A DNA stretch of 64,000 bases from Rhabditophanes sp. KR3021 (Eukaryota; Nematoda; Chromadorea; Rhabditida; Alloionematidae), in NCBI GenBank assembly GCA_963281155.1, contig CAUJLY010000004.1:6076001-6140000 (forward strand), read 5' to 3'. Position numbers and translations under genes: made by a program. Shown here one piece after another: positions 2 through 37,639 of this stretch (its first letter is position 1; each line of letters opens with the position of its first letter). The notes under the pieces are model-generated. The model saw only the letters and a list, made by a program, of their open reading frames with translations, did not search any database and was not told the DNA's origin.

Positions 2-889
2 TTATTCCGACATTGCAACATCGAATTTGATTGTGTGATAGGCACAAGCAACATGTTTGTCCTTTGGAGAACACAATTGAGTCAACTTTTTGAATAGTTT
101 AGTACTATAGCTTTCATTGACCATATTATCTTCATTGTTGGTATTACACATCTTTTGACATTGTCTCATCTTATTAGCAGCCATTTCATTTCTATCAATT
201 ACGTGAACCACGGCAGTCAAAACACCTTGTTTCAAATAACTCCAGTATTCAGACAACTTAGATTCAGAATCACCTTCACGTAATTCCTTTTGAGTTGGAG
301 TGCACATTTTAAAGCTTAATTTTTGGAAATTCTTCCCAGTTTCACACTCACCGTCATTACTGTTAATATATTTACTAATCTTTTCCTCCTCTGATTCCAA
401 ACTGCCGCATAAATTGCAGAATTTGCAGGTGTTCTTTCCTTGGAGCATTCCTCTTAATTCACTATCCTGACTTTCCGGACACCAATTGGTTTGAGTAATG
501 TTTGTGCAAATATTGGACACTTCGTTAAAAGCGTGGCTATTGTATTGTCTGCATGGGAGATTGGTCCCCATTGTAAAGAAAGCCTCGATGTAGGGGTTTA
601 CGATAGGTTTCTTTACTTTGAAGGAGAGATCGACTTTGTAGCATCCAGGGAAACGTAACTTAGATTGTTTTCCATCTTCAGCAATAAAAGTAACGGAATC
701 TTTGTTTTCATTGGATCCATCAGGAATCGGGTTGAATTTAAATTTGATTGAATCGGCGTCAACGACTTCACTATTCATATTGGGACAGGAAGTGGTTATA
801 TTTTCTCTCATCATAATAGTGATGTCTTTGGCAACAATAACTATAGCATAACATGCTACACCAACTACAGACTTAACGAAAGAAACCAT
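2..889 (-). CDS. Cys-rich protein with N-terminal hydrophobic segment, unknown function
   Basis: A single open frame of 295 residues runs from an ATG at 889 to a TAA at 2-4, so the gene is complete although it lies at the window edge. Residues about 7-20 are hydrophobic and look like a signal peptide or anchor. The rest is hydrophilic and rich in cysteine, with a tight CKFCNLC cluster near the middle and further paired cysteines near the C-terminus, which suggests a disulfide-stabilised extracellular domain. I do not recognise a named family; the uninterrupted frame, regular composition and start context support a real gene. It heads a group of small secreted-protein genes reaching to about 6 kb. 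A short upstream exon cannot be excluded. Confidence 0.75.
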   Translation of the reverse strand: MVSFVKSVVGVACYAIVIVAKDITIMMRENITTSCPNMNSEVVDADSIKFKFNPIPDGSNENKDSVTFIAEDGKQSKLRFPGCYKVDLSFKVKKPIVNPYIEAFFTMGTNLPCRQYNSHAFNEVSNICTNITQTNWCPESQDSELRGMLQGKNTCKFCNLCGSLESEEEKISKYINSNDGECETGKNFQKLSFKMCTPTQKELREGDSESKLSEYWSYLKQGVLTAVVHVIDRNEMAANKMRQCQKMCNTNNEDNMVNESYSTKLFKKLTQLCSPKDKHVACAYHTIKFDVAMSE

Positions 890-1219
890 TTTAAATATAT
901 GTTATTGGGAGTATTTAATTTGTATTTAATTCGTATTTTAAATTCATTTATATACTCATCCCACGACACTATTAATAACTATTATTAACACGAATTTGAT
1001 CAACAAGCCGTTTCAAACATAATCCTATTTTTTATTCATTTTTTACAAACACACTTTTCGTGATCTCTTTATTTATACTGTTTCGCCATGTCATATCTTT
1101 TTTAAAGTCTATTATATTCTTATTACATCTTTATCAGGTCCTTATCAATATACTGATAATACACCCTTTTAATTCATACCTGTTACCTTCTTTTAATGCT
1201 ATACTAGTCCATAACCATC
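890..1219. other. Intergenic, divergent promoter region
   Basis: AT-rich spacer between two divergently transcribed secreted-protein genes. I see no coding exon or RNA gene. It presumably carries the promoters of both neighbours. Confidence 0.5.
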
Positions 1220-9015: not shown

Positions 9016-9921
9016 TTAAAAATTACAATGGTTATGAACAGAAATTGAATCATCTGGAAATCTTTTCAATGATGGCTTACCGACAATTCCACCAAATAGG
9101 GACGTTGCATTAGAATCATCAAAGTTGCACGCGTAATTGAAGTTTGATGGATTGGTTTTAGGTAGCGTCATTGAAATTGAAAACATCTTATTATTAATAA
9201 AAATTGGATCAATTGGAAAACCATTAATTCCTAATTTGGCCTCTTTATGTGTCTGTGACTTAGATTGTTTGTCTGTTAAAAAATTATGATAGTCATGCTT
9301 GAAAGTTGGACAGATATTTTTGACCTTTCCTTCTACTTCATCAACTTTGCTTAGCGGCTTGTAAAGTTTGTAATATATGATGACAAGAATAACCATTAAG
9401 AAGATAACCAAGGAAGTCAGAATTAAATCAAGATTGGAATGTAGCTTTTCACGGAGAGACGGTTCGACTTCTTTAAAATATCTAGATTTTTGAATGAGGA
9501 CCTTTGCGGTATAGCATTTTCCATACAGTTCGGTGATAAATTCATCTTCATTATAATGTACAAAAAGCATCTCAATTCGCGATTCGTCATATTGGGTTGC
9601 CGACTGATTTTCTTCATCATAACTTAACACGCCAGAAGAGATCATAATTTTGCTTTCTTCATAGCTAGCAAATTCTTCGATGATCTGTATATTTCCGTAT
9701 TTGGTTAACTTTGATGTTGTTGACTTGTAGGATAGGTATTTATGTCCATTATTAATTAGGTCAAAGTTTAGTCTGAATAAAGCATTGTATGCACCCAATT
9801 TTTGCAAGCATTTATTGCTGTAATCTATCGAAGTTACTGTTCCTTTGACTTGTAAAATTAGTTTATTAGGAAGTGCAGTTGCTGTTAATAATATAGTAGA
9901 TAAGATTAATATTTTAGACAT
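9016..9921 (-). CDS. Single-pass type I membrane protein, unknown
   Basis: A 301-residue single-exon frame starts at the ATG at 9919-9921. It has a signal peptide (residues 1-16, MSKILILSTILLTATA), an ectodomain of about 145 residues with three cysteines, one strongly hydrophobic helix at about 165-187 (LILTSLVIFLMVILVIIYYK) and a cytoplasmic tail of about 115 residues. This is receptor-like topology. I recognise no extracellular domain family; the ectodomain is rich in beta-type alternation. The tail lacks obvious kinase or adaptor motifs. Confidence 0.7.
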   Translation of the reverse strand: MSKILILSTILLTATALPNKLILQVKGTVTSIDYSNKCLQKLGAYNALFRLNFDLINNGHKYLSYKSTTSKLTKYGNIQIIEEFASYEESKIMISSGVLSYDEENQSATQYDESRIEMLFVHYNEDEFITELYGKCYTAKVLIQKSRYFKEVEPSLREKLHSNLDLILTSLVIFLMVILVIIYYKLYKPLSKVDEVEGKVKNICPTFKHDYHNFLTDKQSKSQTHKEAKLGINGFPIDPIFINNKMFSISMTLPKTNPSNFNYACNFDDSNATSLFGGIVGKPSLKRFPDDSISVHNHCNF

Positions 9922-10522
9922 ATTCTGGAATCAAACAATTAATGACACTATAAATTTGGCATGAGTAAGAGCAATGGATGGTAATAAATATCAATAAGGG
10001 CGAATGAGTAAAGTAGACATGTACGTTTGACTATACAATTTAATAAAAAAAGACTGTCTTAGCTTTGACATAATATGATGAAAATTTTGTAGATTAGATG
10101 TTTTCAATGATGTGCCGAGCAAAGTCATCAATATCTTCCAATAAATATTTTAGATCATAGATTAATATTATACCAACTTTGTTAAAGTTTAATAATTTGG
10201 AGAGACTCCTTCTTAGTATGAAGTTTGACATAAATACTTGTATATATCCTTCTGGACAAATGCTGGTATATTTGCATTGTGAAATAATCATCTTCCTCAA
10301 ATAAAAAAGTATTGACACTGTTCTAAAAACAATACAAAAAGCTATAAATTAGTTTTATTTACTGATTATAAACATGAATGGCATGTTTACTAATTTTTGA
10401 TCATTATGCACACAAAAAATAGAGTTGTAATTATTAACGACCATTTTAATTATCTATATCAATCAAAAATAATTAATTCTCCACATATAAATTAATAGTA
10501 ATTGGGTGTTTCTTTAAATTTA
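9922..10522. other. Intergenic, divergent promoter region
   Basis: AT-rich spacer between the membrane protein and the modular secreted gene. A minus-strand 74-codon frame at 10094-10318 has no recognisable features and is probably chance. No repeats or RNA genes are seen. Confidence 0.4.
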
Positions 10523-13500
10523 ATGATTCAAATTTATTTCCTACTCGTTTTTTATATTCCTTTGGTAAGAGGAGCTCAAAAGGATATAGTTCAACGTAAT
10601 TTTGGTTATGGAGGTCAAATGTCTGTTAAAGCAAATCAGCCATCTGTAAATGATGCCATTGACTTTAAGCCTCCAAATGGCTTTAGGGAAGTGCCGAATT
10701 TCGGAATTCCAACAAACTCTGAGTTCAAATGGAGGAAAATGTTTGTAAATGATATAGGCCAGCCATTCACTTTTGACAACTCAAAGTTGATATATCCTGT
10801 TATGGTTGATAAACAAAATTTACCCGTAGTGTTAAGTCCAAAGGGGGAAGTTTTAGCAGGATTTTGTCAAACTTTACGACGTCCGAAGAAATTTGCATCT
10901 TTAAATGGCCCTTTTTACAAAGGATCATTTGATTTGGCATCTATTCGAAACAAATCATTTACCCATATTCCGAAATTTCACCGCGATGACGCCATCTCTC
11001 TAACCAAGCTGAAGGATTTTCATTCAAAAGTGGTTGGCAAAAGACTAAATGGGGTTAATTTAGGGAAAATTAACAAAAGCAACAAATTTAAAGTTGGGGC
11101 AATTAATTCCAAATTAAATGAAGTGGTTCCTCCAAAATATGTGATGCTTTCTTATGATAGGGGTGTAAAGATTGCAAAAAATAATGTGTATTGGCCAATC
11201 TACATCAATCCCTACTTTGCAACAGTTGCTTTGAATGAAAGAAACCAAGAAATACCTGTAGCATTTGATAATTTAGGTGTGGCTTACACCATAAATCCAG
11301 GTGGGTCAAAAAACCCCGGATTTAAGACAGTTAAAGGCCAGCGGATAAATGGGAATGTTACACGCAAAATGATTAACAAGTTTTTGGATATCCATGGTAT
11401 TGTAAATGACATCAATCGAATGAGTTCAGCATTTCCATCATATCACACAATTTCACGACCAAAGCAACCGAAACAGCCACCCCAAAAGCCTGCTACTGTA
11501 AAGTCAGCACAACCAACCGGCAAAGTTGTAGTTAAGGGTGTTACTACTAAAAAACCAAAAGTAAAAAGTGTACCACATAATTTTGGTCTGAACAGTTTGT
11601 TTAATATTCAAAGGCTAAATTTGAAAGTAATGACAGGAATGAACAAAAATACCGGAGGTAGTTATTAAAATTAAACGTAGGGGTGAAAATAATATTAAAA
11701 TTACTCATGCTGGTCATCTCATCATAGAACATCCTTTTAACTAAGATGTCAGCGACTGCACATGCGTTGATAGAATTGAGCAAGTAGGCATCAGGCATAG
11801 AGCATTTGCAATGATCCAGTTGGTGATCTGATGCTTGAGCCTTCCAGAAAGATAAACTCGACATTCTCAGCTGATTCTTTAGCAGGCGCGGGAAGCTTGA
11901 TATAGAGAACTTAGGGCGGATACACCAAACGTGTTATTTCATCTAATTCCTTTTTACAATAAACTTAGTTGTAACAAATGTATCCAGCCAACTCTTTGTT
12001 AATTCTAGACTTTTTTGATTGACAAATGTCTCAAACCAAAAATCACAGCTATTTCCTTCTTATTTTTTTTACGGTTTTTCTTTAAGTCACTTTTACCTCG
12101 CTTCCCTCCATAGTTTAACTGCAGTTGAGTGAATAGGTAACTGAAATAAGGAGGCAACATTTGTAAATGTTGGAAGTTAAATAACAATATAAATACATTA
12201 ATAACGACATCAGATTTGAAAGTTAATAATGTGCAAAATTCAAGAAATATTCTTTAAAAGGAAACCCTTCGTATATAGTTTTTTTAAAATGTGCACTTTA
12301 ATATGGAATAATAATATTTATTTAAAATACTGAAGGTCATAAAGTTAATATTGCAAGCAATCATGTCATGATACCTCAAATGGGAGCCAAGTTGAATGTA
12401 AATGTTGCGCGTTATTTTCCAATTTACATTAATGTAAGGCAGGAAGTTTATTCATTTGATGAGTAAGTTCTGAGCATCACAATAAATTGTGCTAAAAGTG
12501 TAACGTTATTCAATATTACTTAACTGTATTTGTCATTATTTGACATTGTTTTTAGTCACGGCAAACCCTACCAGATTATGTTTGATGCTAAAGGAGCACC
12601 ATGTGTAGTACAAAAAAATAAAGTGATTTTGCCTGGATACAAAATGGTTAAAGGACAATATATATTCTGTAATCCCAAAGATGTAATTAAGGTAAAAAAG
12701 ATACCGCTAACTCCGAGCCTTAGAAATCAAATTAAAAACATGTCTCCGAGTTTCCCGGGCTGGCACATGCTTTTTACGACACCAAAACCTAATCCAGTAA
12801 AACAAATTCCTGTAAAAGCACCGCCTACTAAAGCACCAATTAAAAAAGGGCCACCAACGAAAGCTCCTATCGCTAAAGGTTCTGGTAACATTGTTAATTC
12901 CATGAATCCTTTTGACGAACCAACTCCACCAAAGAAATTACCGAAAATTGTAATTACTGGTGTCAAAGCAAAGTCTAAAATACCACATAAGAAAAAAATT
13001 TTCAAGGTTCAAGATGGAACAAATGTTCCAATTAAAAAAGTAGTGTCTAAAAAAGTTAATAATACGACTAAGTTTAATATTAGACCTGTAAAAATAATTA
13101 CTCCGGAAGCTGAGCAAAAGCCCAAGGCAAAAGCACCAATCGATGAAGAGATTATAACGACTTCATCTACTAAACAACCTAGAAAAAAGACTACAACTTT
13201 AACTACAACTCCTGGATCCGATGTAAATGCAAAATCAACAATTCCTGGAACTACCGAACCCGAGAATGAGGAAGAAGAGGAAACAACAACGGAAATGCCT
13301 CTTACGACTGCGGTATCAGATTCAATCTCAACTACCTCATCTGTATCAACTGTAAAACGTACAAGAAGAACACGGAAACCTACTACACCAAGTACAACTA
13401 TTGAGCCAGATTATGAGGAAGAAACAGAACCATCTCCTCCTACTTCGACGATTGAACCGACTGTTGTTACACGAGGAACTATAAAAACATCTTTAACAAC

Positions 13501-15534
13501 TCCAGGTACGACGAGTGAACCAGCAGAAATTGAAGAGGGGAAAGAACCGTTCATACAAGAACAACTACTACAAAAAAAACCAGAAAGCAATCTACTACTG
13601 CTTCTCTCACAACAACCACTGAGCCGGAAAAAATTGAAGAAGAAGGCACAACAGCTTTGACCAGAAGAACAAGAAAGCCTACTACTGTACCTACTTCAAC
13701 CAAAGCTAACGAAAGCCCAACATCTACAACCACAGAGCCAGATTATTATAGCGAGGAAATCGAAGAAACTGCTTCCACTAAAAGATTTCGTAAAACTACG
13801 ATTTCTGACCATATTGATACCGGAGAAAGTACAACAGCTGAAGTACCAGTTAGTGAAGAAGAGCAGTCTTCAACTACCAGGAGAAGTAGAACTAAATTGG
13901 CAACAACAGCTAAACCACCATCCATTAAGCCAAATAAAGATGGGTTAGGAATAGATTGGAATGAAATAGATATCAACGCTGCTTCTGGTTTAGGTTTGAT
14001 TAGTAAAGGATTAAAGAATAAAATTCCACCTGGAAATGTTCTGGTACCAAAAAAAGGAACACAAATTGGTGAGGAGGATGGTTATTACCCTATTTATTAT
14101 TCAACGAAAGACAAGCACCTTTATACGTATGATGAGTAAGTTATTTAGATTTTAATTGATTTAACTATTTTTCAGTAACAACAAAAGATACAAAGTACAT
14201 TTAGACGAAGATGAGATACCTTTCACATTAAAAGACGGAATTGTTTCTCCTGGATACACACTAACTAATGGAATTCCAAAGTTCGGTAAGAAGACAAATA
14301 AGGAAAATGTCAATGTGAATGTCAATATTACTATCATTATTGACGAAATATCTAAATTATCTCCAAAAGATCCTTCCTTTATTTCTATCTATGACAAGAA
14401 AGAGACTGAAGAGTTGGTTGATTATAGTTTTGGACGTGGTGTCAACTTGGCTAGTTTAGATATGCATAAAGCAACTGGGATGGATAATATTAATGCTGGG
14501 AAAGGTATTAATGTGAAGCCTGGGTACATAATGATACCTCATTATGGGATCAATTATGAAGGCAAAATACATCCTGGCTACATCGATAAGAAAGGAAATC
14601 CTGTCATGTTTAATGAGTAAGTCAAAGAATATTTAGAAACTCTTTTTAGCAAATATTTAGTAACGGAAGGGAAATCGAAATTTTCCTAACATCAGACGGA
14701 AAGCCTGTGACAGTAAATGAAAAAGGAGAAACATTTTATGGGTTCATTGAAAATGAGGATGGAACTCCAGAATGGGGAAAGATAGGAGCCTCGTTTGCTA
14801 AAGAATGCATTGACGTTGAAGCAATGTTGAAAGAAATTGAAGCGTTGGGTCCATCATCTCCAGCGTATTACTTTATTTATGACAGCGATGGTCCTGATTC
14901 TATTAAGAAGCCGAAATCAGCAAATGTTCAAAAAGTGATTACTTTAAAAAATAATACAAACGTAATTTTGGGATCTGGTTTAAATTGGGATAATATTGAT
15001 AAAAGAAGGGCTAAAGGATTAGAAGATATAAATGCTGGTTTTGCTGTAGATATCCCAGAAGGCATGGTTGTCGTACCAGAAATTGCCGTTCAGTTAGATA
15101 ACGAAAATAAGCGTTACCATGTTGTCTTAATTGATTCTGTTGGAAATATGGGAGCTATAAATGAGTAAGTTCAATTAGACAACATAATTATCTTACTATT
15201 TTTTAGTAATGGCGAATTTGAGCCAGTTTATGTCAATGAATTAGGTATTCCTGCCACCAAAAATGGGGAAGGTCGCTTCGTGCCAGGTTTGAAACGAATG
15301 GGTCATAATGTTGTTCGTGGTAGTAGCGACGAGGATTTCAAAACCGTTAAAAAAGATCCATTTACTGTGGCTCAAGCAAATTTTGATCTGGGAGAAGACA
15401 ATATAGGATATTACACAATCACAAAACCAGTTCCAAATAAAGGACTAGCAATATCTTCTATTGATATTGAATTCGGTCTAGGGATAAAGTGGAAACAATT
15501 TGATTTGGAAAATAGCATTGGCTTAGGAAAGTGA
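10523..15534 (+). CDS. Large modular secreted repeat protein, 5' part
   Basis: Exons: 10523-11657, 12345-12462, 12556-14135, 14176-14616, 14661-15164 and 15207-15534. The ATG at 10523 opens a signal peptide (MIQIYFLLVFYIPLVRG). The protein is a chain of related modules of about 120-160 residues, each with an (I/V)PPGYVMIP..G start, an aromatic Y.PIY block, a FDDNG turn, a D..G.P and PGY segment and an ending like PSYYTI. Modules are joined by motifs such as GLNWDNID..RA.GLEDINAG. Exon 3 also carries a Thr/Glu-rich mucin-like spacer (about 13130-13910). Introns after 12462, 14135, 14616 and 15164 all split the same GA^T Asp codon of the FDDNG turn. The frame breaks near 13540, and the part ends at TGA 15532-15534 although the same module pattern resumes at 17039. 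I do not recognise the family; it may be an extracellular matrix or cuticle component. Confidence 0.75.
11665..12310 (-). mobile_element. Degenerate transposon copy filling an intron
   Basis: The 687-bp intron 11658-12344 is almost entirely made of a sequence related to 55055-56735. The 22 bases at 12181-12202 are identical to 56605-56626, and similarity extends over about 200 bp around them. The other end shares TTATTAAAATTAAAC (near 11662 and 55057) and a minus-strand coding block with the motif CSMPDAYLLNSINACAVADI. A basic N-terminal-like segment (NYGGKRGKSDLKK) is also on the minus strand. It is an internally deleted copy, antisense to the host gene, with ends close to both splice sites. 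Terminal inverted repeats and target duplications are not clear to me. Confidence 0.65.
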
Positions 15535-17038
15535 AGTTTATTGAAAATATAAGTTCAAATATTTAAAAAAAGTTAGAATATGAAATACCATTAGCATAGA
15601 AAATTTCATCAAGAATAAGATCTGCAACTTGACTGTTCATTTCGGGAAAAAGTATCCTACTTCATCTAAAACGGCTTTCCAGAGTCCTTGTTGCTGATTT
15701 GCGATCTATAGCGTTCATTCGAACACACTTAATGCTTTTTTCCACCTCCTTTGACTTTTACCATTTTCTCAAAACAATAATTTCCCTATTTTTCAATGTC
15801 TCATCCAAAAGCACTTTATTGAAAACGGCTTTTTTAGCGTAAAACACTAGTTCCAATTTAAGCGCAGCATTGAACAATTGTGTGTAAGTATTTATTCTGT
15901 TATCAAAATCTGTGGTTTCGTCAACGCAAAATTAAATACTCTTATCAATTCATTCTTCAAAAAATTCACTAATACTTTACTCTTTTCCTTTGCTGTAGCT
16001 TCATCTTCAAGTTGTTTTATTCTTAGCCTTGTAGCAAGCATATTTGATTTTAACTGCGAGCAAATAAAGAGGCTAAAATTATGTGCCCCAACAAACACTT
16101 CTTTGCAATGAAGGCATATTAACTCGCCCTTTTGTAATTCCCTACTGGTTTGTCAGAATGGGAAGCAGCAATTAAATTTGAAAATTCACTTTTGTCCAGA
16201 GACATAACAATTCTTTCAGCAATTGAAATGTAATCAACTTTCCTATTTGCTCCTCTACTAACAAAACGTGTGATATTGCCAATCTAACATTATCACAATC
16301 TTTCTCAACACGCTCAAACATTGTTCCACTATTTGTTTCAAGAACGTCTTTCATTAACTGTTTCCGAAACAACAAGCACATCAAATCTTTCATATAAGAG
16401 TCTTCTTATAGTTTCTCTAGCAATCTGTCTTAAACCTTTGTGTACCAAAATACTGAGTCTCAGCCAAGTTTATAGTTTTAACCAATTCTTTCCACTAGCC
16501 ACTTCTAATTGGTCTAAAACAAAATATGAATTACAATAATAGTTGCTTCAAACTTGCCAACTGATTTGTGTCCCTATTGTGTTGAACATTACAGTCTCCA
16601 GCAGCCATATGTCGCTTCCTCCATCAGCTATTTGAACTTGATCTAAAAAAAATGATTGCCACAAGATAATTAGCTTCAAACTTATCAACTTCGACATTCT
16701 TTCTTCTCATTGTTTGAGTGAGACTCCCATTGTCAGTGCGAGCTACCTTCTCCCTCATGTTCATGTTTGTACTCTTAACAGATGATGTTAAATCATGGTC
16801 TCGTTTCAGTGAGACTTTAATTTTTATCCACCATATTAGATTAAAAACCCCTAATCAGAGACGGTGCTAAACACTAAAATAATATTAGAAAATAAGAATT
16901 TGATCATAATATCGCCATGACGCGTACATAGTTTTAGCTAATATCTTAAGATACAAAATCTAAAGCAGAGCCTCACTATTTAAGTAATAAAAAGATGTGA
17001 TCTCTTTTATGAAAATATTTAATCTATAATTGGTTTAG
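15535..17038 (-). mobile_element. Transposon-derived remnant between the two halves of the modular gene
   Basis: About 1.5 kb between host coding segments carries broken minus-strand coding sequence: a zinc-finger-like stretch near 16048-16118 (ELICLHCKEVF) followed by a coiled-coil-like ATRLRIKQLEDEATAKEK, and a second frame at 16172-16393. The CxxC-x12 layout resembles the finger-like motifs in the inserts at 49.4-50.9 kb and 55.0-56.7 kb, suggesting related elements, perhaps hAT-like transposons with a CGBP1-type finger. The frames are interrupted, so the element is dead. Its edges cannot be fixed from this copy alone. Confidence 0.5.
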
Positions 17039-18517
17039 GACAAGTTGATTCCGTATTTCAAGAAGACATTCCTGATATTGAAACTGGGTAAATTTAAAAG
17101 ATTACTGTATATAATAGGAGTTTTAGATGGGTTCTTGTTCCGAATATGGGTGTCAAAACTAGACCTGATGATGAATATTACTGGCCTGTATTTATGGACA
17201 TAAAGTAATAATTATCTATTGTATTTAAATTAAAACAATTTCAGTGGACATGTCTCTGCGTTCGATGGCGATAATGAAATGCTGGATGTTTTATTTGACT
17301 CCAATGACTGCCCAATTGCAGTTTCTTCAACCACTGAAAAATATTTCATGGGTTACAAGCAAGTCAATGAATCTTACTATTACGCAAACTCGACAGATAA
17401 TTTTGTGCTAAAAAAGTTAAATATCGTCAATGTTATTGCAGATATCGAAAATTTAGGAATTTATTTTATTGGATATTATACAATTCACAACCCAGAGCCA
17501 GGTGTTGCCATCTCCAAAACACTTGTCTCAACAAAACCAAAAGAAAAGGAAGAAGAAGTTATCATGGGAACTGGCTTCGATTTGAGCAAGTACAACTTTG
17601 AGGATGCCGAATTCTTGGGAAACATCACAGAAGGTTTGGATGTAACTATCCCCCCTGGTTATGTTATTAAGACAAATATGGGCATCAAGATTACTGAGGA
17701 TGGAGGGTATAGGTTTGTTTATGTGAATACAAACAATAATACCCTGCATACATTTGACGATGATGGGGGTATTTTTAACGTAGCTTTGGATAAAAATGGA
17801 GCGCCAATTGTCAAGGATGCCGATGGAAATCTACATGATGGATATAAAGATGTTAATGGAACTATAGTTTATTCGAAAGTTAGTAAAATGAATTATGATT
17901 TCACAGTTACTATTAATATTACTATTGTAATCGAAGAAATTAAGGCATTGTCAAGAATGCATCCGTCATATTATACTATCTTCAGAACAGATGAAGTTCC
18001 ATTCCCAAAAAGAGAAGACAATGACGATGATTTTATTGAATCGGATTCAACTGGCACAATACTAGTTGATTCGGAATATGCCATTATTCCCTCATGCTTT
18101 TGCAAAATGGAACCCGATGAAGAAATGTACTTCCCGTGTGTTGTAACAAAAGAAAACAATGCAAAGTGTTATACGTCTGCGGGGGATAAGCCTGATTTAG
18201 TATTTGACTCTCAAGAGGCCCCATTAACTGTTGTTGGGGATGCAAAGTTGCCCGGCTTTATTATTATTAATGAGGTAGAAATCTATGGAAACCTAACATC
18301 TATTCATAAGAGCAAGATATTTGACTATAAACAATACAATGATATACCGATCATTGAACCGGAGGAAATCAAAAGTGAGTCTCCAAACGCAACCGATGAA
18401 GAATCAACTAATATGGAAGAGCCTGCTGAAGAAGATGGAATACCTGACGAATATGAGGATGATGATACACCACCACCTACTGAAGACCAATTTTTCGATA
18501 ATTTACTCGTTGATTAA
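17039..18517 (+). CDS. Large modular secreted repeat protein, 3' part
   Basis: Exons 17039-17087, 17127-17204 and 17245-18517 (introns 39 and 40 bp) continue the module series: IETGWVLVPNMGVK, YYWPVFMDINGHVSAFD, a second module starting IPPGYVIKTNMGIKITEDGG, and a divergent last one (IIPSCFCKMEPDEEMYF), ending in a very acidic tail (EPAEEDGIPDEYEDDD). The intron after 17204 splits the codon equivalent to the conserved FDDNG intron site, whereas the following module has lost that intron. There is no start codon or signal peptide here, and the first acceptor (17037-17038) leaves phase 1, which the canonical ends of the preceding exon cannot supply. It is most likely the rest of the gene starting at 10523, interrupted by the insert, but it could be a severed or separately spliced part. 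Confidence 0.7.
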
Positions 18518-18614: not shown

Positions 18615-21546
18615 TTACTTGCTAATCCAATTAATAATCCTTCTTGACCTTGATATTGTGTTTTCATTGCCTCTCTGGAAATTTGATTCCAGAGTAAGAC
18701 TGTTGTTCTCAGATGGTTCTTCTAACCTTCCTAGTATGTCCATAATGATAGTTGTGGTGGAGTCCTTTTCATTCATCAACGTTTTAAGTTCTTTGATTAA
18801 TTTAGCCTCTTCGTTTGATTTTTCATCGCACTTGTATTCAGCAATACTGGCTCCTACCAATTCAATGGACTTCTGAATCTTTATTATACTTTCGTTTGTT
18901 TCTCTTAAGTTGGCTAGTGAATTGTAGTAGTCAAGTTTCAACATTAAAGTCTCAATTTCCTCAGCATAAGCCAGCTTTTGTTGAATAAATTGGCTTTCCT
19001 CTGTGCTGCTTTTTTGAAGTGTTGGTAATTTGGAATTTAATTGGTCTTTCAATTTTTGGATGTCATTGACTCTTTCCTGGATAATATGTTGTTCGGTAGA
19101 TGCTTTATTTGGATTTGCTAAATCTATTTCCCACTTGTTTTTCAGCTTACGTGTCGGAGTTTCGTGAGGACTTAATCTTCTTATCTCACTACCCGGTGTG
19201 CCTTGTGAAAATAGATGTGATGGTGCTATCTAAAAATAAATGTTAATTAACACCAATATTAATGAATATATAGATCTATATAAACGTGGGGAACAAACAC
19301 AATACCGTTGGGAAGTTTGTAAGGTTGGTGATCGAATTTTTGCTCAAGAAAGAAGAGAAACTTCCTGCGAGTTCTTGGCCCCTCATACTGCCATATCGTT
19401 TCATTCTCTCAATATTATCAAAAATACCATTTGACTCGACGTCATTGTTAATAGAAGACTGGGATGAATAACGTGATTGTGACTGACTTCGAGGGTAAGG
19501 TTTATATACATTCTTAGAAATATTCTAAATAGAGTTACAAAAGCACACGACAGTATATACAACACTTACCTCTATACTGCCGTTAACTGAACTTTTTCTT
19601 GAAGGTCTAGCACATGCCGGAATTATTGGTGTGTCGGCTAAAATTAAATAAAATAATATTGACCTCAATTAAACTTACAAATAGCTTTTCTAGTCACATT
19701 TGGAGAAGGTATGACCTTGTTAAACTTTCTAAATGTCATATCCGTTTGATTTAAAGCTACAAACACAGAACAACATTAATTTAAGACACGTATCAACTTA
19801 CATAATTTTCTCAAGTCAGTTTGTGATCCCCCAAAAGAACCCGTAGTTGATCGAATGCTTCCAGTTCTGTTTAATTTGTTAGACGGGAGAGTGGCGGCTG
19901 AAGGCGATGAATCACTTGCTTGAGACAATAGGTTCCTAACTTCTTGTTGGTATTTGGCCCTCTTGTCGTCATCATCAAGTTCTGTAGCTAGCAAAGCAGC
20001 TTGCTCGAGCATTTTCTTAGCTTTTTCCTTTTGGTCTTGACCATTCGAAGAGATTTTGTACAAATTTATATCACCAGCTAGATTCTTCTTCTTTTTAGAA
20101 CCATTACTATCACTTCTTGTAAACTTGAAATCATCACTATTCTTAATCTCACTAATCTTTTGACTTTCTTTATTTTTCCTCTGAGCTTCATTAAAGTTAT
20201 CAATTAACTGAAGTTCACTATCTGAATGCTTAAAGATATCGGAAAAACGGTGGTCACTTTTCCTTTTCTTTAAAGTTGAAATTGCGTCAATCGAATCATC
20301 ACTTATTTGGTTAGCATCTTTTTGCAAGGCATACTTCAAATTTGCCAAATATTCCTTCATTTTGCCCTGTTCAACTCCAGACACCCACACAACTTCAGTA
20401 ATTAGACGCTTAACATTTAGTACTTCTCCTGCACTATATCCCTTTAAAACATTGGCTTTTTGGCCGTCACTTCGATTGTAAAAATGGATGTCATCGAAGT
20501 TGCCTATTAAGTCTGGCCTGTATGCGTGAATTATGGCACACAACACAACCCCACTCTTTAAATCTTTCGGCAGTTTACTACCGTCCTTACTTCTATACGA
20601 TTCAATTACTCTTCTTGTCCATGCATTTAGCTCTTCGTTTTCGACATATTTCACCTCACATTTGACGTCCTCTTCAACAGGTGCAATTACATTCACTTTT
20701 TCATTTCTCAATATGACGGTATCTTGAATTGGAGGTTGGATAGGATTGTTTATTACCTCAATAGGTTCTAAGGTTGGTTGAGGTGGTGATGGCTTCATTA
20801 TTGTTATGGAAGGAGCGCTTTTTACCTCAATTGGTTTTTGGCTATATTCTTTGATAACTTCATTGCTTCCTATCTTTATTTCTTCCTTTTGGCTTATTTT
20901 GGCAGAACTTTCTATAGCTATAGGAATTCTTTCTAATTCTTCGGCTACACTATTTTGCCTACTAGACCCAAAAGACAATACGCTATTCCTATCTCCTTCT
21001 GTAGAAGTTGAGCCATCCAATATCTTTGGTTCAATTTGTAACTTTAAATATCCAGTTTCAAGAAATGAATCTAACGGCTTTAGTTTTAAATTAATCTCAT
21101 ATCGCTGGTCGAGAAAATGACGCATGTTCAAAGGACACGCAGCCAGTGCTTTCTTTTTGTTTCTGTTCAATATTTCGTAAACAACTATTACCCATTTCTA
21201 AAATGAATTGTTTTATTAATAGTATATTTAAGACGACCAAACATACTTTATCACAAAATTCATTTGTTTTCCTATCCCTGTAAAAAGTAGTTTCAAATCT
21301 AACAGGATCTACCAAAGAATCTGGCCAAGCTATTAGTCCTCGAGATAAGTCCACTTGTCCAGGATCGATGGTCCTATTGCTACATTGATACATTCTGTTG
21401 CCATGTTCTATTGCCACACAAACAACTGCCTTTGGTTCGGCAGGCCACTTGGTGGCATGTTGCAAGAATAACTCTGTGCATTTAAACGTAAAACGGCACT
21501 TGGTAGCTGTAGATTTGTCCCTCCGAATTTTTTTAACTACATTCAT
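18615..21546 (-). CDS. ehbp-1: EH domain-binding protein 1 homologue (NT-C2, CH, bMERB)
   Basis: Six exons: 21247-21546, 19802-21197, 19679-19756, 19570-19637, 19306-19524 and 18615-19229, with introns of 41-76 bp and consistent phases; product about 891 residues. The N-terminus (residues 1 to about 165) matches the NT-C2 domain of EHBP1. A calponin-homology domain sits at about 288-395 (ELNAWTRRVIESYRS, then SGVVLCAIIHAYRPDLI). The C-terminal ~180 residues are a coiled-coil bMERB Rab-binding domain (WEIDLANPN, HIIQERVNDIQKLKDQ, ELKTLMNEKD). EHBP1 proteins link RAB-10 and EHD/RME-1 to actin during endocytic recycling. I chose the internal ATG at 21544-21546 because the frame upstream has only a non-ATG start. 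It converges with the modular gene, 97 bp away. Confidence 0.9.
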
Positions 21547-34723: not shown

Positions 34724-37639
34724 ATGATTGTTTCTAATAAGCTCATTTTTATCTTTCTCAATTTATTATATCTAAGTAAATCACAAAGAATAACTTCTAC
34801 TGAGATTAAAGAATCATCTTACCCGCAGAAAACTCTCTATGGTCTTCCTCCTTTGCCCGATGACACGGACGAGTATCGTGAAACAATAGTTCCTCAAAGA
34901 ACTACGACACAAAAACCTTTCCGTTTCATGCTTCCCCAAGTTAACCCCATAGCTCCTCATGGAGTATTACCTCACGCTGGGCTATTTAATTTACATGGTG
35001 CCACCAAATCAGAACTACCCGTTCAACATGAATCAAAGTACAAAGGACATTTTGATGAAGATGGGATGTTTGTACCTGAGGAAAATAAAGCTAAAAAAAA
35101 TCTCCAGGTAATAACAATCAGACCCTTAATTAGATAACTAATTTACTATTAATTAAATAACTAATTGACTATTAATTAAATAACTATTAGACTATTAATG
35201 ACAGACATAATTTGTAAACAATTAATAAACAATTGATTATTCCAGATGAATGCGGCTCCAACATTCATTCATTCAACTGAAAATGATGAAAAAGAAGGTG
35301 AAGATCTTCCCGAAAAGTCATATGACGAAAATATATCAATAGATGATCAAACATTTGACGAAGATGTGATCTCCTTGAAAGAAGGTACTCTTAATAAAGT
35401 CAACTTATCCACTATCTATAAACATAACATTGACAATTCGAATGAACATTTCGTAAAAGATATTACTGAAACAACCTTGTTAACAACAGCCAAAGAGCTG
35501 CCCAGTAAAGTATTTTTAACAACAGAAGTTCATACTTTTTACACGACCACGGAAAAACCAATTCCACCTCAAATTGACATTACTCAACCATCACCGATAA
35601 TAACTCAACCACGGGTTGTGCAACCATTAATTACTCAGCGACCAATTATTCCAATTCAACAAACTCGACATAGTCATAAGTCAACTGAACAATTAAAAAT
35701 TGTTAATAATTTTGAAACCAATCAAAACATAAGAAACAATTTCGAATCAAATCAGAATTCCGGAAATGCATTTGAATCAAATCAACGTACACACATTGAA
35801 TCAAATCAAAACAATTTTTTTGCAAATGTCAGGAACAGATTTGAGGACGAACAATTCGGAAAAATTAATAATTTTGGAACTGATAAACCAGCTCAACAAA
35901 TTCGTCACATCAACAATTTTGAGTCCGTAAAAGAAAGGGAAAAAAGTAGATTTGAAGGTAAAAAACATAATCGTAGTGGCAGCAGTTCGGAAAGTAGAAA
36001 AAGAGGAGAAAATTTCCAAACTACTCAGACTAAAATGGCATTAACCGGATTTGAAGAAACTGTCATCCAAAGAACAACTACTGGTCCCAAAATTACCAGT
36101 GGTCTTTTCACTAACTTGAGGATGCCTATTCCTCCTGTAAGAGGTGTAAAAAAAGAAAGAGTTCTCACCACTAAGAAGCCAATTCCTCAAATTCAATTCG
36201 ATATTGCTGCTGGTGGAAATGGCTTCAACGCAAATGAAAAAACCTTATCTAAATCTAACAACCAATTCGTAGACTTTGAAATCGTTCCAAATCAAGTATT
36301 CAAAAATATACCTCCCTCTGCTAAGGTTGATAACATTCCCAGATTACCTTTACCGACACATGTACCAAAGCCGTTCAAAAATGTATTCAAAAATCATGTA
36401 AATCCACCCCATAAAGTAGTTCATCCGCCAAACAAACAACCGCCACCCTTTATCACGACAACTCCCTTTCCAAAAAGACAAATAATAATTGATGAAACAC
36501 CAACCAAAAATGTGCATTTCATTGATAACAACCGCGCACCCCAACAACCTAGATTAAATCAAAACTTTATAATACCACAAAAACAAGCTTTTCTTAAACC
36601 AACAAATCACATTCCCACAAACTCACACCACCCAAACAAGAATGTTGTTAATCATAACAATTTCGCAACTCCTAAAGTTTTCAACAAAAACATTCCAAAC
36701 AAAGCGATTATTAGAAAGGTATTTAATCCTGTTGGAAGTCCCAGTCCCAGATTACCGCTAATCAAATCCAGAAAACCTCCCCTACCCCCTCCAATGGTTC
36801 ATAGACCAGTTCAAAAACCTGTTATTCATCAAAAACCAAGTGGCCCGGAAGCTGAAGTCATCTTCCCTAGAATTCCTATCGACGTTATAAATCCAAGCGA
36901 CAATATGTTTACCGATGATGTAGAACAAGTAGATTGGCATTCGTATCATCATGCCATTCGAAGTGGCGCACAACAAGTAACTCCCCCAAGAAGCAATATG
37001 CCAAACAACATTCCTCCAGTCCAAATAAATAATCAACCGCGCAACTTCCAAGGAACTCACATTGTGCCTAATCAAAGAGGAGCATTTGGAAATCCCTTAT
37101 CTCAACTTTTCTGGCCTTTATTCGGAGGAGGAGCGAGAGCTAGAGGAGATACTACAGCCGTCTTATCTGATTCTGCTCCAAATAGTGCCCTGCCAACAAC
37201 GTACCGAAATGATCAATGGTACAAAAATCCTCCCCAATTAAATCTAAATCTTCCGGGAATGGAAAATCAACAACCTCTGCAATCAGTTCCTGGAACTCCT
37301 GCACAAACTGCTGTTCCCGTAAGTAGATCTAATGGGGAAAGTAACCAAGGTGAAACTTTGGTACCCTTCCATAATGAAGACACAGGCCGAGTCGAACCAT
37401 ACAAACTAACCACCATCCAACCACCTTACAATTACGAAGAAAGAGAAAGAAGGTTGTATACGGCAAGTGGCAATAACGGGCAAACGAACAACAATTATTT
37501 CAATAATAACAATATGAATAACAACAACGGCTACAATAATCTCTTCAACAACAATCCATTCCAAGGCTTATTCAACATCTTCAACAATCAAAGACCATTC
37601 GGATTTATGGGGGCACAAACATTTGTTCCCTCGCAATAA
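34724..37639 (+). CDS. Long secreted low-complexity N/Q/P-rich protein
   Basis: Exons 34724-35107 and 35246-37639 join through a 138-bp phase-0 intron; 925 residues. Residues 1-20 are a signal peptide (MIVSNKLIFIFLNLLYLSKS). There are no cysteines to speak of. Sections in order: a Thr/Pro segment with LYGLPPLPDDTDEY, an acidic region, a run of NNFETNQ/NNFESNQ-type short repeats (about 290-330), Pro-rich stretches such as PHKVVHPPNKQPPPF, a small Gly/Arg block (LFGGGARARGD) and a final Asn-rich tract ending GAQTFVPSQ. The composition suggests a disordered extracellular matrix or cuticle/pharynx protein with prion-like character. No homologue is recognised by eye. Confidence 0.85.
35130..35205. 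repeat. 23-bp tandem repeat in intron
   Basis: Three imperfect head-to-tail copies of a 23-bp unit like taactaattgactattaatt, spaced exactly 23 bp, inside the intron of the N/Q-rich gene. Confidence 0.75.

What the first reader, a model, noticed from the sequence alone, without database searches (positions are those of the whole stretch)
10523..18517. Undescribed modular secreted protein with a conserved intron in each module
About eight related modules of 120-160 residues share a (I/V)PPGYVMIP start, a Y.PIY block, a FDDNG turn and a PSYYTI end. Introns after 12462, 14135, 14616 and 15164 split the same GA^T Asp codon of the turn, and the intron after 17204 sits at the equivalent place (AA^T). 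That pattern says the gene grew by duplication of an exon-intron unit. The last module has lost the intron. A mucin-like Thr/Glu spacer sits between modules. I know no named domain with this pattern.
Basis: partly seen in the sequence, partly recalled or inferred. Interest (0 to 1): 0.75.

Follow-up and report, generated by a model that had tools for sequence, protein, structure and literature searches.

The report
Undescribed repeat domain of secreted worm proteins
A free-living worm related to the threadworms carries a family of long, apparently secreted proteins built from about a hundred copies of a protein module that has no accepted match in the family libraries searched; the gene in this window is one member, interrupted by a mobile-element remnant, and an intron at one fixed place in the module looks like an old relic that most copies have lost.

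Summary
The modules are real: nine (not eight), scoring 33-108 bits in leave-one-out tests against at most 10.4 for shuffles. Four of five claimed introns (after 12462, 14135, 14616, 15164) split the same codon (module position 46, phase 2); the one after 17204 lies 8 positions upstream. The genome fits Rhabditophanes diutinus KR3021. The family has at least 105 modules in ten clusters on two contigs, no credible Pfam or NCBIfam match and no homolog found outside Rhabditophanes (limited power). AlphaFold2 gives a confident seven-strand-plus-helix module (pLDDT 91.2, pTM 0.86). The position-46 intron is in 12 of 105 modules, 6 of 10 clusters; none of 45 intronless modules has an AG|R insertion site there: best read as an ancestral intron mostly lost. 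Growth by exon-intron duplication is possible for this gene but not the family's general mode. Here the gene is interrupted by a dispersed repeat in module 7 and one frame change. A secreted matrix or glycocalyx role is inferred only.

The parts
10523..10573 (+). signal-peptide-like N-terminus (MIQIYFLLVFYIPLVRG)
   Evidence: by eye; no signal-peptide program run
10523..11657 (+). exon 1
   Evidence: open frame; 3' end inferred from GT donor and module continuation
10643..10978 (+). module 1 (intronless, divergent)
   Evidence: 79 bits
11102..11452 (+). module 2 (intronless)
   Evidence: 104 bits
11658..12335 (+). inferred intron, 678 nt, phase 1, between the linker and the body of module 3
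   Evidence: GT/AG and frame; module likeness across the junction; no transcript evidence
12336..12775 (+). module 3, split by intron at module position 46
   Evidence: 115 bits, (match there began at 12329, by read-through)
12463..12555 (+). intron, position 46 phase 2 (GA^T)
12776..13930 (+). mucin-like Thr/Glu/Pro/Lys spacer, no Cys or Trp; the open frame changes between about 13534 and 13560
13999..14392 (+). module 4 with intron 14136-14175 (position 46, phase 2)
   Evidence: 102 bits
14486..14880 (+). module 5 with intron 14617-14660 (position 46, phase 2)
   Evidence: 109 bits
15025..15420 (+). module 6 with intron 15165-15206 (position 46, phase 2)
   Evidence: 87 bits
15421..15534 (+). 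linker and first residues of module 7, ending in a stop codon
15545..17030 (+). dispersed degenerate repeat inside module 7; near-repeat ATTGG(C/T)TTAGGA at its two edges (15517 and 17029)
   Evidence: 20 other partial matches in the genome, 66-82% identical; flanks
17041..17488 (+). rest of module 7, with introns 17088-17126 (by eye) and 17205-17244 (position 38, phase 2)
   Evidence: for the part from the second half on; P0001 supports the second intron
17621..17983 (+). module 8 (intronless); the module whose structure was predicted (query 17522-18001)
   Evidence: 116 bits
18065..18337 (+). module 9 (divergent, groups with last or next-to-last modules of other clusters)
   Evidence: 76 bits over positions 10-100; 65 bits, whose end used an artefact intron; grouping
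18338..18517 (+). acidic C-terminal tail and stop

Best explanation
The window holds one member of a multigene family of Rhabditophanes diutinus that encodes long, secreted, multi-domain proteins. Each module of about 140 residues (118 modelled positions) folds alone into a seven-stranded beta sheet with a C-terminal helix (predicted). Modules stand in tandem, joined by short helical linkers (predicted for one pair) and in places by Thr-rich, mucin-like spacers. The most likely use, inferred and not shown, is as an extended extracellular matrix or glycocalyx protein (cuticle surface, egg or gut/pharynx lumen): the modules give a long rod or binding surface and the spacers carry O-glycans. The family grew by whole-gene duplication (clusters 5 and 7 are colinear) and by tandem copying of modules. 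An ancestral module carried a phase-2 intron in the loop between strands 3 and 4 (position 46), and probably one near position 19; later losses left them in 12 of 105 modules each. The window copy is probably decaying or split in two: a mobile-element remnant sits in module 7 and the spacer changes frame. Confidence by step: modules and family 0.95; secreted 0.85; ancestral intron with losses 0.7; matrix role 0.4.
For: Modules. Agreement of the splicing calls with another gene finder: 15 of 16 cluster-1 modules found by my splice-aware profile, including all 4 with introns, match UniRef protein P0002 (2539 aa) over their full length; module 16 matches over 48 of 87 residues. P0002 is itself a gene prediction, not transcript evidence. 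Secretion: signal-peptide-like starts before the first module in 9 of 10 clusters, by eye; cluster 2 not readable. Fold: pLDDT 91.2, pTM 0.86, and the same order of elements in each half of a two-module model, one strand being split in the first half, pLDDT 87.5, pTM 0.70. Constant core: Pro61 97%, Gly73 100%, Asp56 85% of 104 modules. Intron: 11 of 69 short introns (60 nt or less) at 46/2 and 12 at 19/1, against a mean of 0.06 and 0.39 if introns chose AG|R sites; 0 of 45 intronless modules has AG|R at 46/2; 8 of 12 have exon end xATGA|. The related Strongyloididae are the most intron-poor nematodes and in nematodes losses far exceed gains (PMC9169325, abstract and sections 6 and 8 read).
Against: No expression, localisation or glycosylation data. 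The matrix role rests on architecture alone. On the module tree the position-46 label needs 12 changes for 12 modules, i.e. no clustering; repeated gain at one spot is therefore not excluded, although 63 of 100 branches are unresolved. In 16 colinear cluster 5/7 module pairs only 2 introns are at exactly the same site (20 against 19 introns of 130 nt or less; 2 more differ by one base), so introns turn over fast here and gain may also happen. The structure model was built from paralogs of one genome only.
Confidence: 0.5

Rival explanations
1. The window gene grew by local duplication of an exon-intron unit: exons of about 450-500 nt, each holding the second half of one module and the first half of the next, were copied with their intron, giving modules 3-6.
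For: Four successive modules carry the intron at the same codon; two inner exons are symmetrical, phase 2 to 2; one clade of the four is not rejected, AU p 0.41.
Against: The same intron sits in five other clusters; module 4 groups with intronless module 8, starred; modules 3, 5 and 6 do not group with each other on the tree (mostly unresolved).
Confidence: 0.25
2. Repeated independent intron gain at one favoured spot in the DE-turn codons of the module.
For: No clustering of the intron on the module tree (12 changes for 12 modules); all 12 as one clade rejected, p 0.012; many other single-use sites; little sharing between colinear genes.
Against: The site is not an AG|R proto-splice site in any of 45 intronless modules and the weighted expectation is 0.06; nematode losses far exceed gains (PMC9169325 abstract).
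Confidence: 0.2
3. The modules are sugar-binding or pathogen-binding domains (lectin-like or immune), diversified by selection, rather than structural matrix.
For: Large, fast-diverging family (25-61% identity between colinear modules), apparently secreted, mostly beta fold.
Against: No lectin or immune family was accepted. No selection test was run; I judged synonymous sites saturated from protein identity and did not compute this.
Confidence: 0.25
4. The window copy is not one gene but two separate genes, 10523-15534 and about 17040-18517, or a pseudogene.
For: The UniRef model P0001 starts at the Met of NMGVKT, inside module 7; stop codon and dispersed repeat between the halves; frame change near 13.5 kb; by eye I found no GT/AG pair that keeps the frame across the repeat (not searched exhaustively).
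Against: Module likeness and the splice sites outside the break are kept; an assembly error at the frame change cannot be excluded.
Confidence: 0.5

Closest known systems
UniRef P0002 (2539 aa, 'BPI2 domain-containing protein') and P0001 (443 aa, 'IgGFc_binding domain-containing protein'), Rhabditophanes sp. KR3021
   Same: They are this family: P0002 is cluster 1, P0001 the 3' end of the window gene.
   Different: The names are not supported: no BPI or IgGFc_binding match listed at E up to 10, and PF17517 hits only three other places in the genome.
Mucins and mucin-like nematode surface proteins
   Same: Thr-rich spacer without Cys in an apparently secreted protein; a Ser/Thr-rich mucin-like nematode gene, Mi-muc-1, affects endospore attachment to juveniles (PMC6638177, title and start of abstract in the listing only).
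   Different: Here most of the protein is folded modules; O-glycosylation untested.
YD-repeat proteins (teneurin, Rhs)
   Same: Strand-turn-strand runs with Y/F...D..G motifs (resemblance recalled); weak sequence-profile hit to teneurin-like protein, E 0.13.
   Different: Not significant; Rhs-related chains appear in the two-module fold list only at E 0.2-0.4.
Nematode sperm protein MFP2 (PF12150)
   Different: Profile comparison gives 0.2% probability; the genome's own MFP2 matches lie elsewhere.

Membership tests
IgGFc_binding (PF17517) | match to the Pfam profile | tested here: not met
   no match at E up to 10 for P0001; in the genome search 3 matches, none in any of the ten clusters
BPI2 / lipid-binding BPI family | match to a Pfam BPI profile | tested here: not met
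   P0002: only a chance hit at E 1.7 to an unrelated family
MFP2 (PF12150) | profile similarity to the MFP2 domain | tested here: not met
   hhalign probability 0.2%; the MFP2 side was a profile of only two pieces from this genome
MFP2 (PF12150) | shared fold | tested here: inconclusive
YD-repeat / teneurin | sequence profile match | tested here: inconclusive
   E 0.13
Mucin | Ser/Thr/Pro-rich stretch | tested here: met
   T+S+P 41% over 387 residues; 28% Thr in the last 257
Mucin | dense O-glycosylation | not testable with these tools
   -
Any Pfam family | match above its curated cut-off | tested here: inconclusive
   8 window pieces of the gene, P0001, P0002 and 8 paralog frames were scanned: 17 of these 18 have no match over its cut-off. 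The one frame L017:2771-4141 gave 25.5 bits to PCC_BT (cut-off 23.5) with 0 stretches passing on their own, inside near-identical tandem copies; taken as a summed-repeat artefact, not followed up

The most novel reading that the evidence does not exclude
The module is a new protein fold that arose in, or survives only in, the Rhabditophanes lineage, and has been amplified to about a hundred copies in at least ten gene clusters on two chromosomes; its fixed intron in the beta 3 - beta 4 loop is a molecular fossil that allows intron loss to be counted across about a hundred paralogous copies within one genome.
Probability: 0.3. Interest if true: 0.65.

Novelty: new variant of a known kind. Interest (0 to 1): 0.5.

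Why it matters
It adds an unnamed domain family with a confidently predicted structure, in a free-living relative of the parasitic Strongyloides used as their comparison species. About a hundred copies in one genome, with introns at fixed and changing places, give a natural experiment on intron loss and gain next to a nematode family known for extreme intron loss. It also shows two public protein names to be unsupported.

Tried and rejected
Homologs elsewhere: three protein searches found only two Rhabditophanes proteins. They need shared 5-residue words, set length limits, and scored only the 7992 candidates sharing most words; other Rhabditophanes paralogs known to exist were not returned. 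So absence in Strongyloides or other worms is not shown. tblastn against plasmids gave no match; a scan of prokaryote genomes matched patterns in 21 stretches, none confirmed; so no sign of bacterial origin. Rfam and tRNA scans of the window were empty.

Artefacts in my splice model: the first parameter set broke genes into fragments and was replaced. In one search the 86-nt and 888-nt introns of window module 7 and the 388-nt intron of module 9 are artefacts (they run through the repeat or past the stop), so the first positions of the module 7 row and the last of the module 9 row in the tree are wrong; several long introns of cluster 5 module 1 are doubtful. The 86-nt one is still among the 77 introns of 130 nt or less; the 69 introns of 60 nt or less leave it out. 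Modules under 40 bits were dropped before counting, and one of 105 was left out of the tree for too few columns. A test of all nine window modules as one clade did not finish.

Papers: no paper on this family was seen in the listings of searches (40 of 58 Rhabditophanes papers listed), 105, 106. For PMC7738172 I read the abstract and section 9; for PMC10676810 the abstract and section 15; for PMC9169325 the abstract and sections 6 and 8. Supplementary expression tables could not be read.
Full report
What the window is. The best protein match to the 3' open frame is a Rhabditophanes sp. KR3021 protein, 99% identical (lineage). The own genome held here has 44.8 Mb in six contigs, with contig 1 of 9.3 Mb and contig 4 of 6.57 Mb, which fits the published R. 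diutinus KR3021 assembly of 44.8 Mb in six scaffolds (PMC10676810 section 15). R. diutinus is a free-living, parthenogenetic relative of Strongyloides (PMC7738172 abstract). The window is contig 4, 6076001-6140000.

The observation. Nine related modules lie between 10643 and 18337. Leave-one-out profiles score the nine at 33.3 to 107.7 bits, against a best of 10.4 bits among 999 shuffles per module. The splice-aware profile finds nothing of 40 bits or more in 44 kb of the rest of the window on both strands (best 10.3), nor in 64 kb of reversed sequence from 8 loci, one strand (best 13.7). The four introns after 12462, 14135, 14616 and 15164 split the same Asp codon in phase 2. The fifth, after 17204, is also phase 2 but lies 8 module positions earlier, so the claim of an equivalent place fails. 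Modules 1, 2, 8 and 9 have no short intron. Between modules 3 and 4 lies a spacer of 387 residues in two frame pieces, 21.7% Thr, without Cys or Trp.

State of the gene. A 678-nt intron (11658-12335) is needed to link the first open frame to module 3 and is inferred from GT/AG, frame and module likeness. The spacer changes frame near 13.53-13.56 kb. Module 7 is cut at 15535: a stretch of about 1.5 kb has 20 other partial matches scattered over contigs 1-4 at 66-82% identity and is edged by a near-repeat of 12 bases with one mismatch. It is therefore probably an old mobile-element insertion. No Pfam domain was found in five open pieces of it. The existing annotation treats the 3' part as its own 443-aa protein, which starts inside module 7 and supports the intron 17205-17244. 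Whether this copy is one gene, two genes or decaying is open.

The family. Three protein searches of the own genome, followed by a splice-aware profile on the fetched stretches, give 105 non-redundant modules of at least 40 bits in ten clusters, all on contigs 1 and 4. These counts are lower bounds. As a check on the splice model, 15 of 16 modules of cluster 1, including all four with introns, match the annotated 2539-aa protein P0002 over their full length, and the sixteenth matches in part; P0002 is a gene prediction, not a transcript. In nine of ten clusters the first module is preceded by a signal-peptide-like start (by eye; cluster 2 could not be read). None of the window pieces of the gene, P0001 or P0002 has a Pfam match over its cut-off, and P0001, P0002 and the first window frame have no NCBIfam match. 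Of eight paralog frames, one low-complexity tandem frame passes the PCC_BT cut-off with no stretch passing on its own, which I count as an artefact. The names 'IgGFc_binding' and 'BPI2' in UniRef are not supported.

How the family grew. Clusters 5 and 7 are colinear: modules r2-r17 of one pair in order with r3-r18 of the other, 25-61% identical, and 12 of these 16 pairs are sister rows on the tree (the other four pairs rest on order alone). So whole genes were duplicated. In cluster 6, neighbouring 312-nt units in one exon are 309/312, 294/312 and 213/312 identical, so modules are also copied inside an exon. One group of the tree (SH-aLRT 86) holds the first modules of clusters 3, 4, 8 and 10 plus one inner module of cluster 10; another (81) holds six modules of which five are last or next to last, window module 9 among them. 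This hints at genes with fixed ends and a variable middle, but the first modules of the other clusters, the window's included, do not join the first group. On 104 module rows only 5 of 100 inner branches are starred and 63 are open, so fine history is not resolved.

The intron. Position 46 phase 2 is used in 12 of 105 modules in clusters 1, 2, 5, 6, 9 (window) and 10; position 19 phase 1 in 12 modules of clusters 2, 3, 5, 7 and 10; every other site at most three times among introns of 130 nt or less. All 77 of these introns are needed to keep the frame or avoid a stop, one of them being an artefact in window module 7. If introns chose AG|R sites as they occur in the 45 intronless modules, 0.06 introns would be expected at 46/2 and 0.39 at 19/1; at most 2 and 4 were drawn in 5000 trials, against 11 and 12 seen among 69 introns of 60 nt or less. 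No intronless module has AG|R at 46/2; 3 of 45 have it at 19/1. I read this as common descent of the site with many losses, which suits a nematode group beside the intron-poor Strongyloididae (PMC9169325). Against a simple history: the 12 modules need 12 label changes on the tree, one clade of all 12 is rejected (p 0.012) while one clade of the four window modules is not (p 0.41), and colinear genes share only 2 exact sites. The site lies in the turn between strands 3 and 4 of the model.

Structure. With an alignment of 34 intronless modules, AlphaFold2 gives the module 17522-18001 at pLDDT 91.2 and pTM 0.86: seven strands and a helix. A two-module stretch of cluster 1 shows the same order of elements in each half, pLDDT 87.5 and pTM 0.70. 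Pro61 (97%), Gly73 (100%) and Asp56 (85%) are the most constant residues. The outcome of the fold searches is told under Tried and rejected; predicted structures of cellular proteins were not available, so a new fold is possible but not shown. The weak MFP2 lead failed a profile comparison.

How it most likely works. Secretion signal, tandem modules and a Thr-rich spacer suggest a long extracellular protein of matrix or glycocalyx type. This is inference from architecture. A binding or immune role is the main rival, and no data here separate the two.

Verdict. The modules and their shared intron are real; the count, the fifth intron and the 'each module' wording needed correction. The growth story is right at the level that modules share what looks like an ancestral intron, but not as a special feature of this gene. 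The family is undescribed in the libraries searched and found only in Rhabditophanes so far, with limited search power. As a domain it is new to those libraries; as a kind (secreted modular protein with mucin-like spacers) it is a variant of something known.

Noticed in passing
window 2-901 (-) and L009:462-1379 (-): The first gene of the window has one other match in the genome, 86% identical, at C1:1644461-1645345, under 1 kb from the start of the module gene of cluster 1; so a block with both genes was probably duplicated between contigs 1 and 4.
   Followed up: partly
window 15545-17030: Degenerate dispersed repeat with 20 further partial copies on contigs 1-4; no Pfam domain in five of its open pieces.
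   Followed up: partly
L017:2927-4174: Four tandem 312-nt module units in one exon, the first two 309/312 identical: a very recent expansion, or an assembly effect.
   Followed up: partly
P0001 and P0002 (UniRef): Names 'IgGFc_binding' and 'BPI2 domain-containing' are not supported by current Pfam.
   Followed up: yes
window 9016-9930 (-): Neighbouring divergent gene with a nematode-specific C2 domain (C2_nem, E 4e-8), apparent signal peptide and membrane segment by eye.
   Followed up: no
window 18615-21197 (-): EHBP1-like gene: calponin homology domain and a weak, sub-threshold bMERB match.
   Followed up: no
window 35237-37639 (+): 800-residue open frame rich in Asn, Pro and Gln with FESNQ-like repeats, by eye; not tested.
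   Followed up: no
cluster 5 and cluster 7 (L014/L020 and L015/L022): Colinear duplicated genes with 16 module pairs share only 2 exact intron sites, and two more differ by one base: possible intron sliding.
   Followed up: partly
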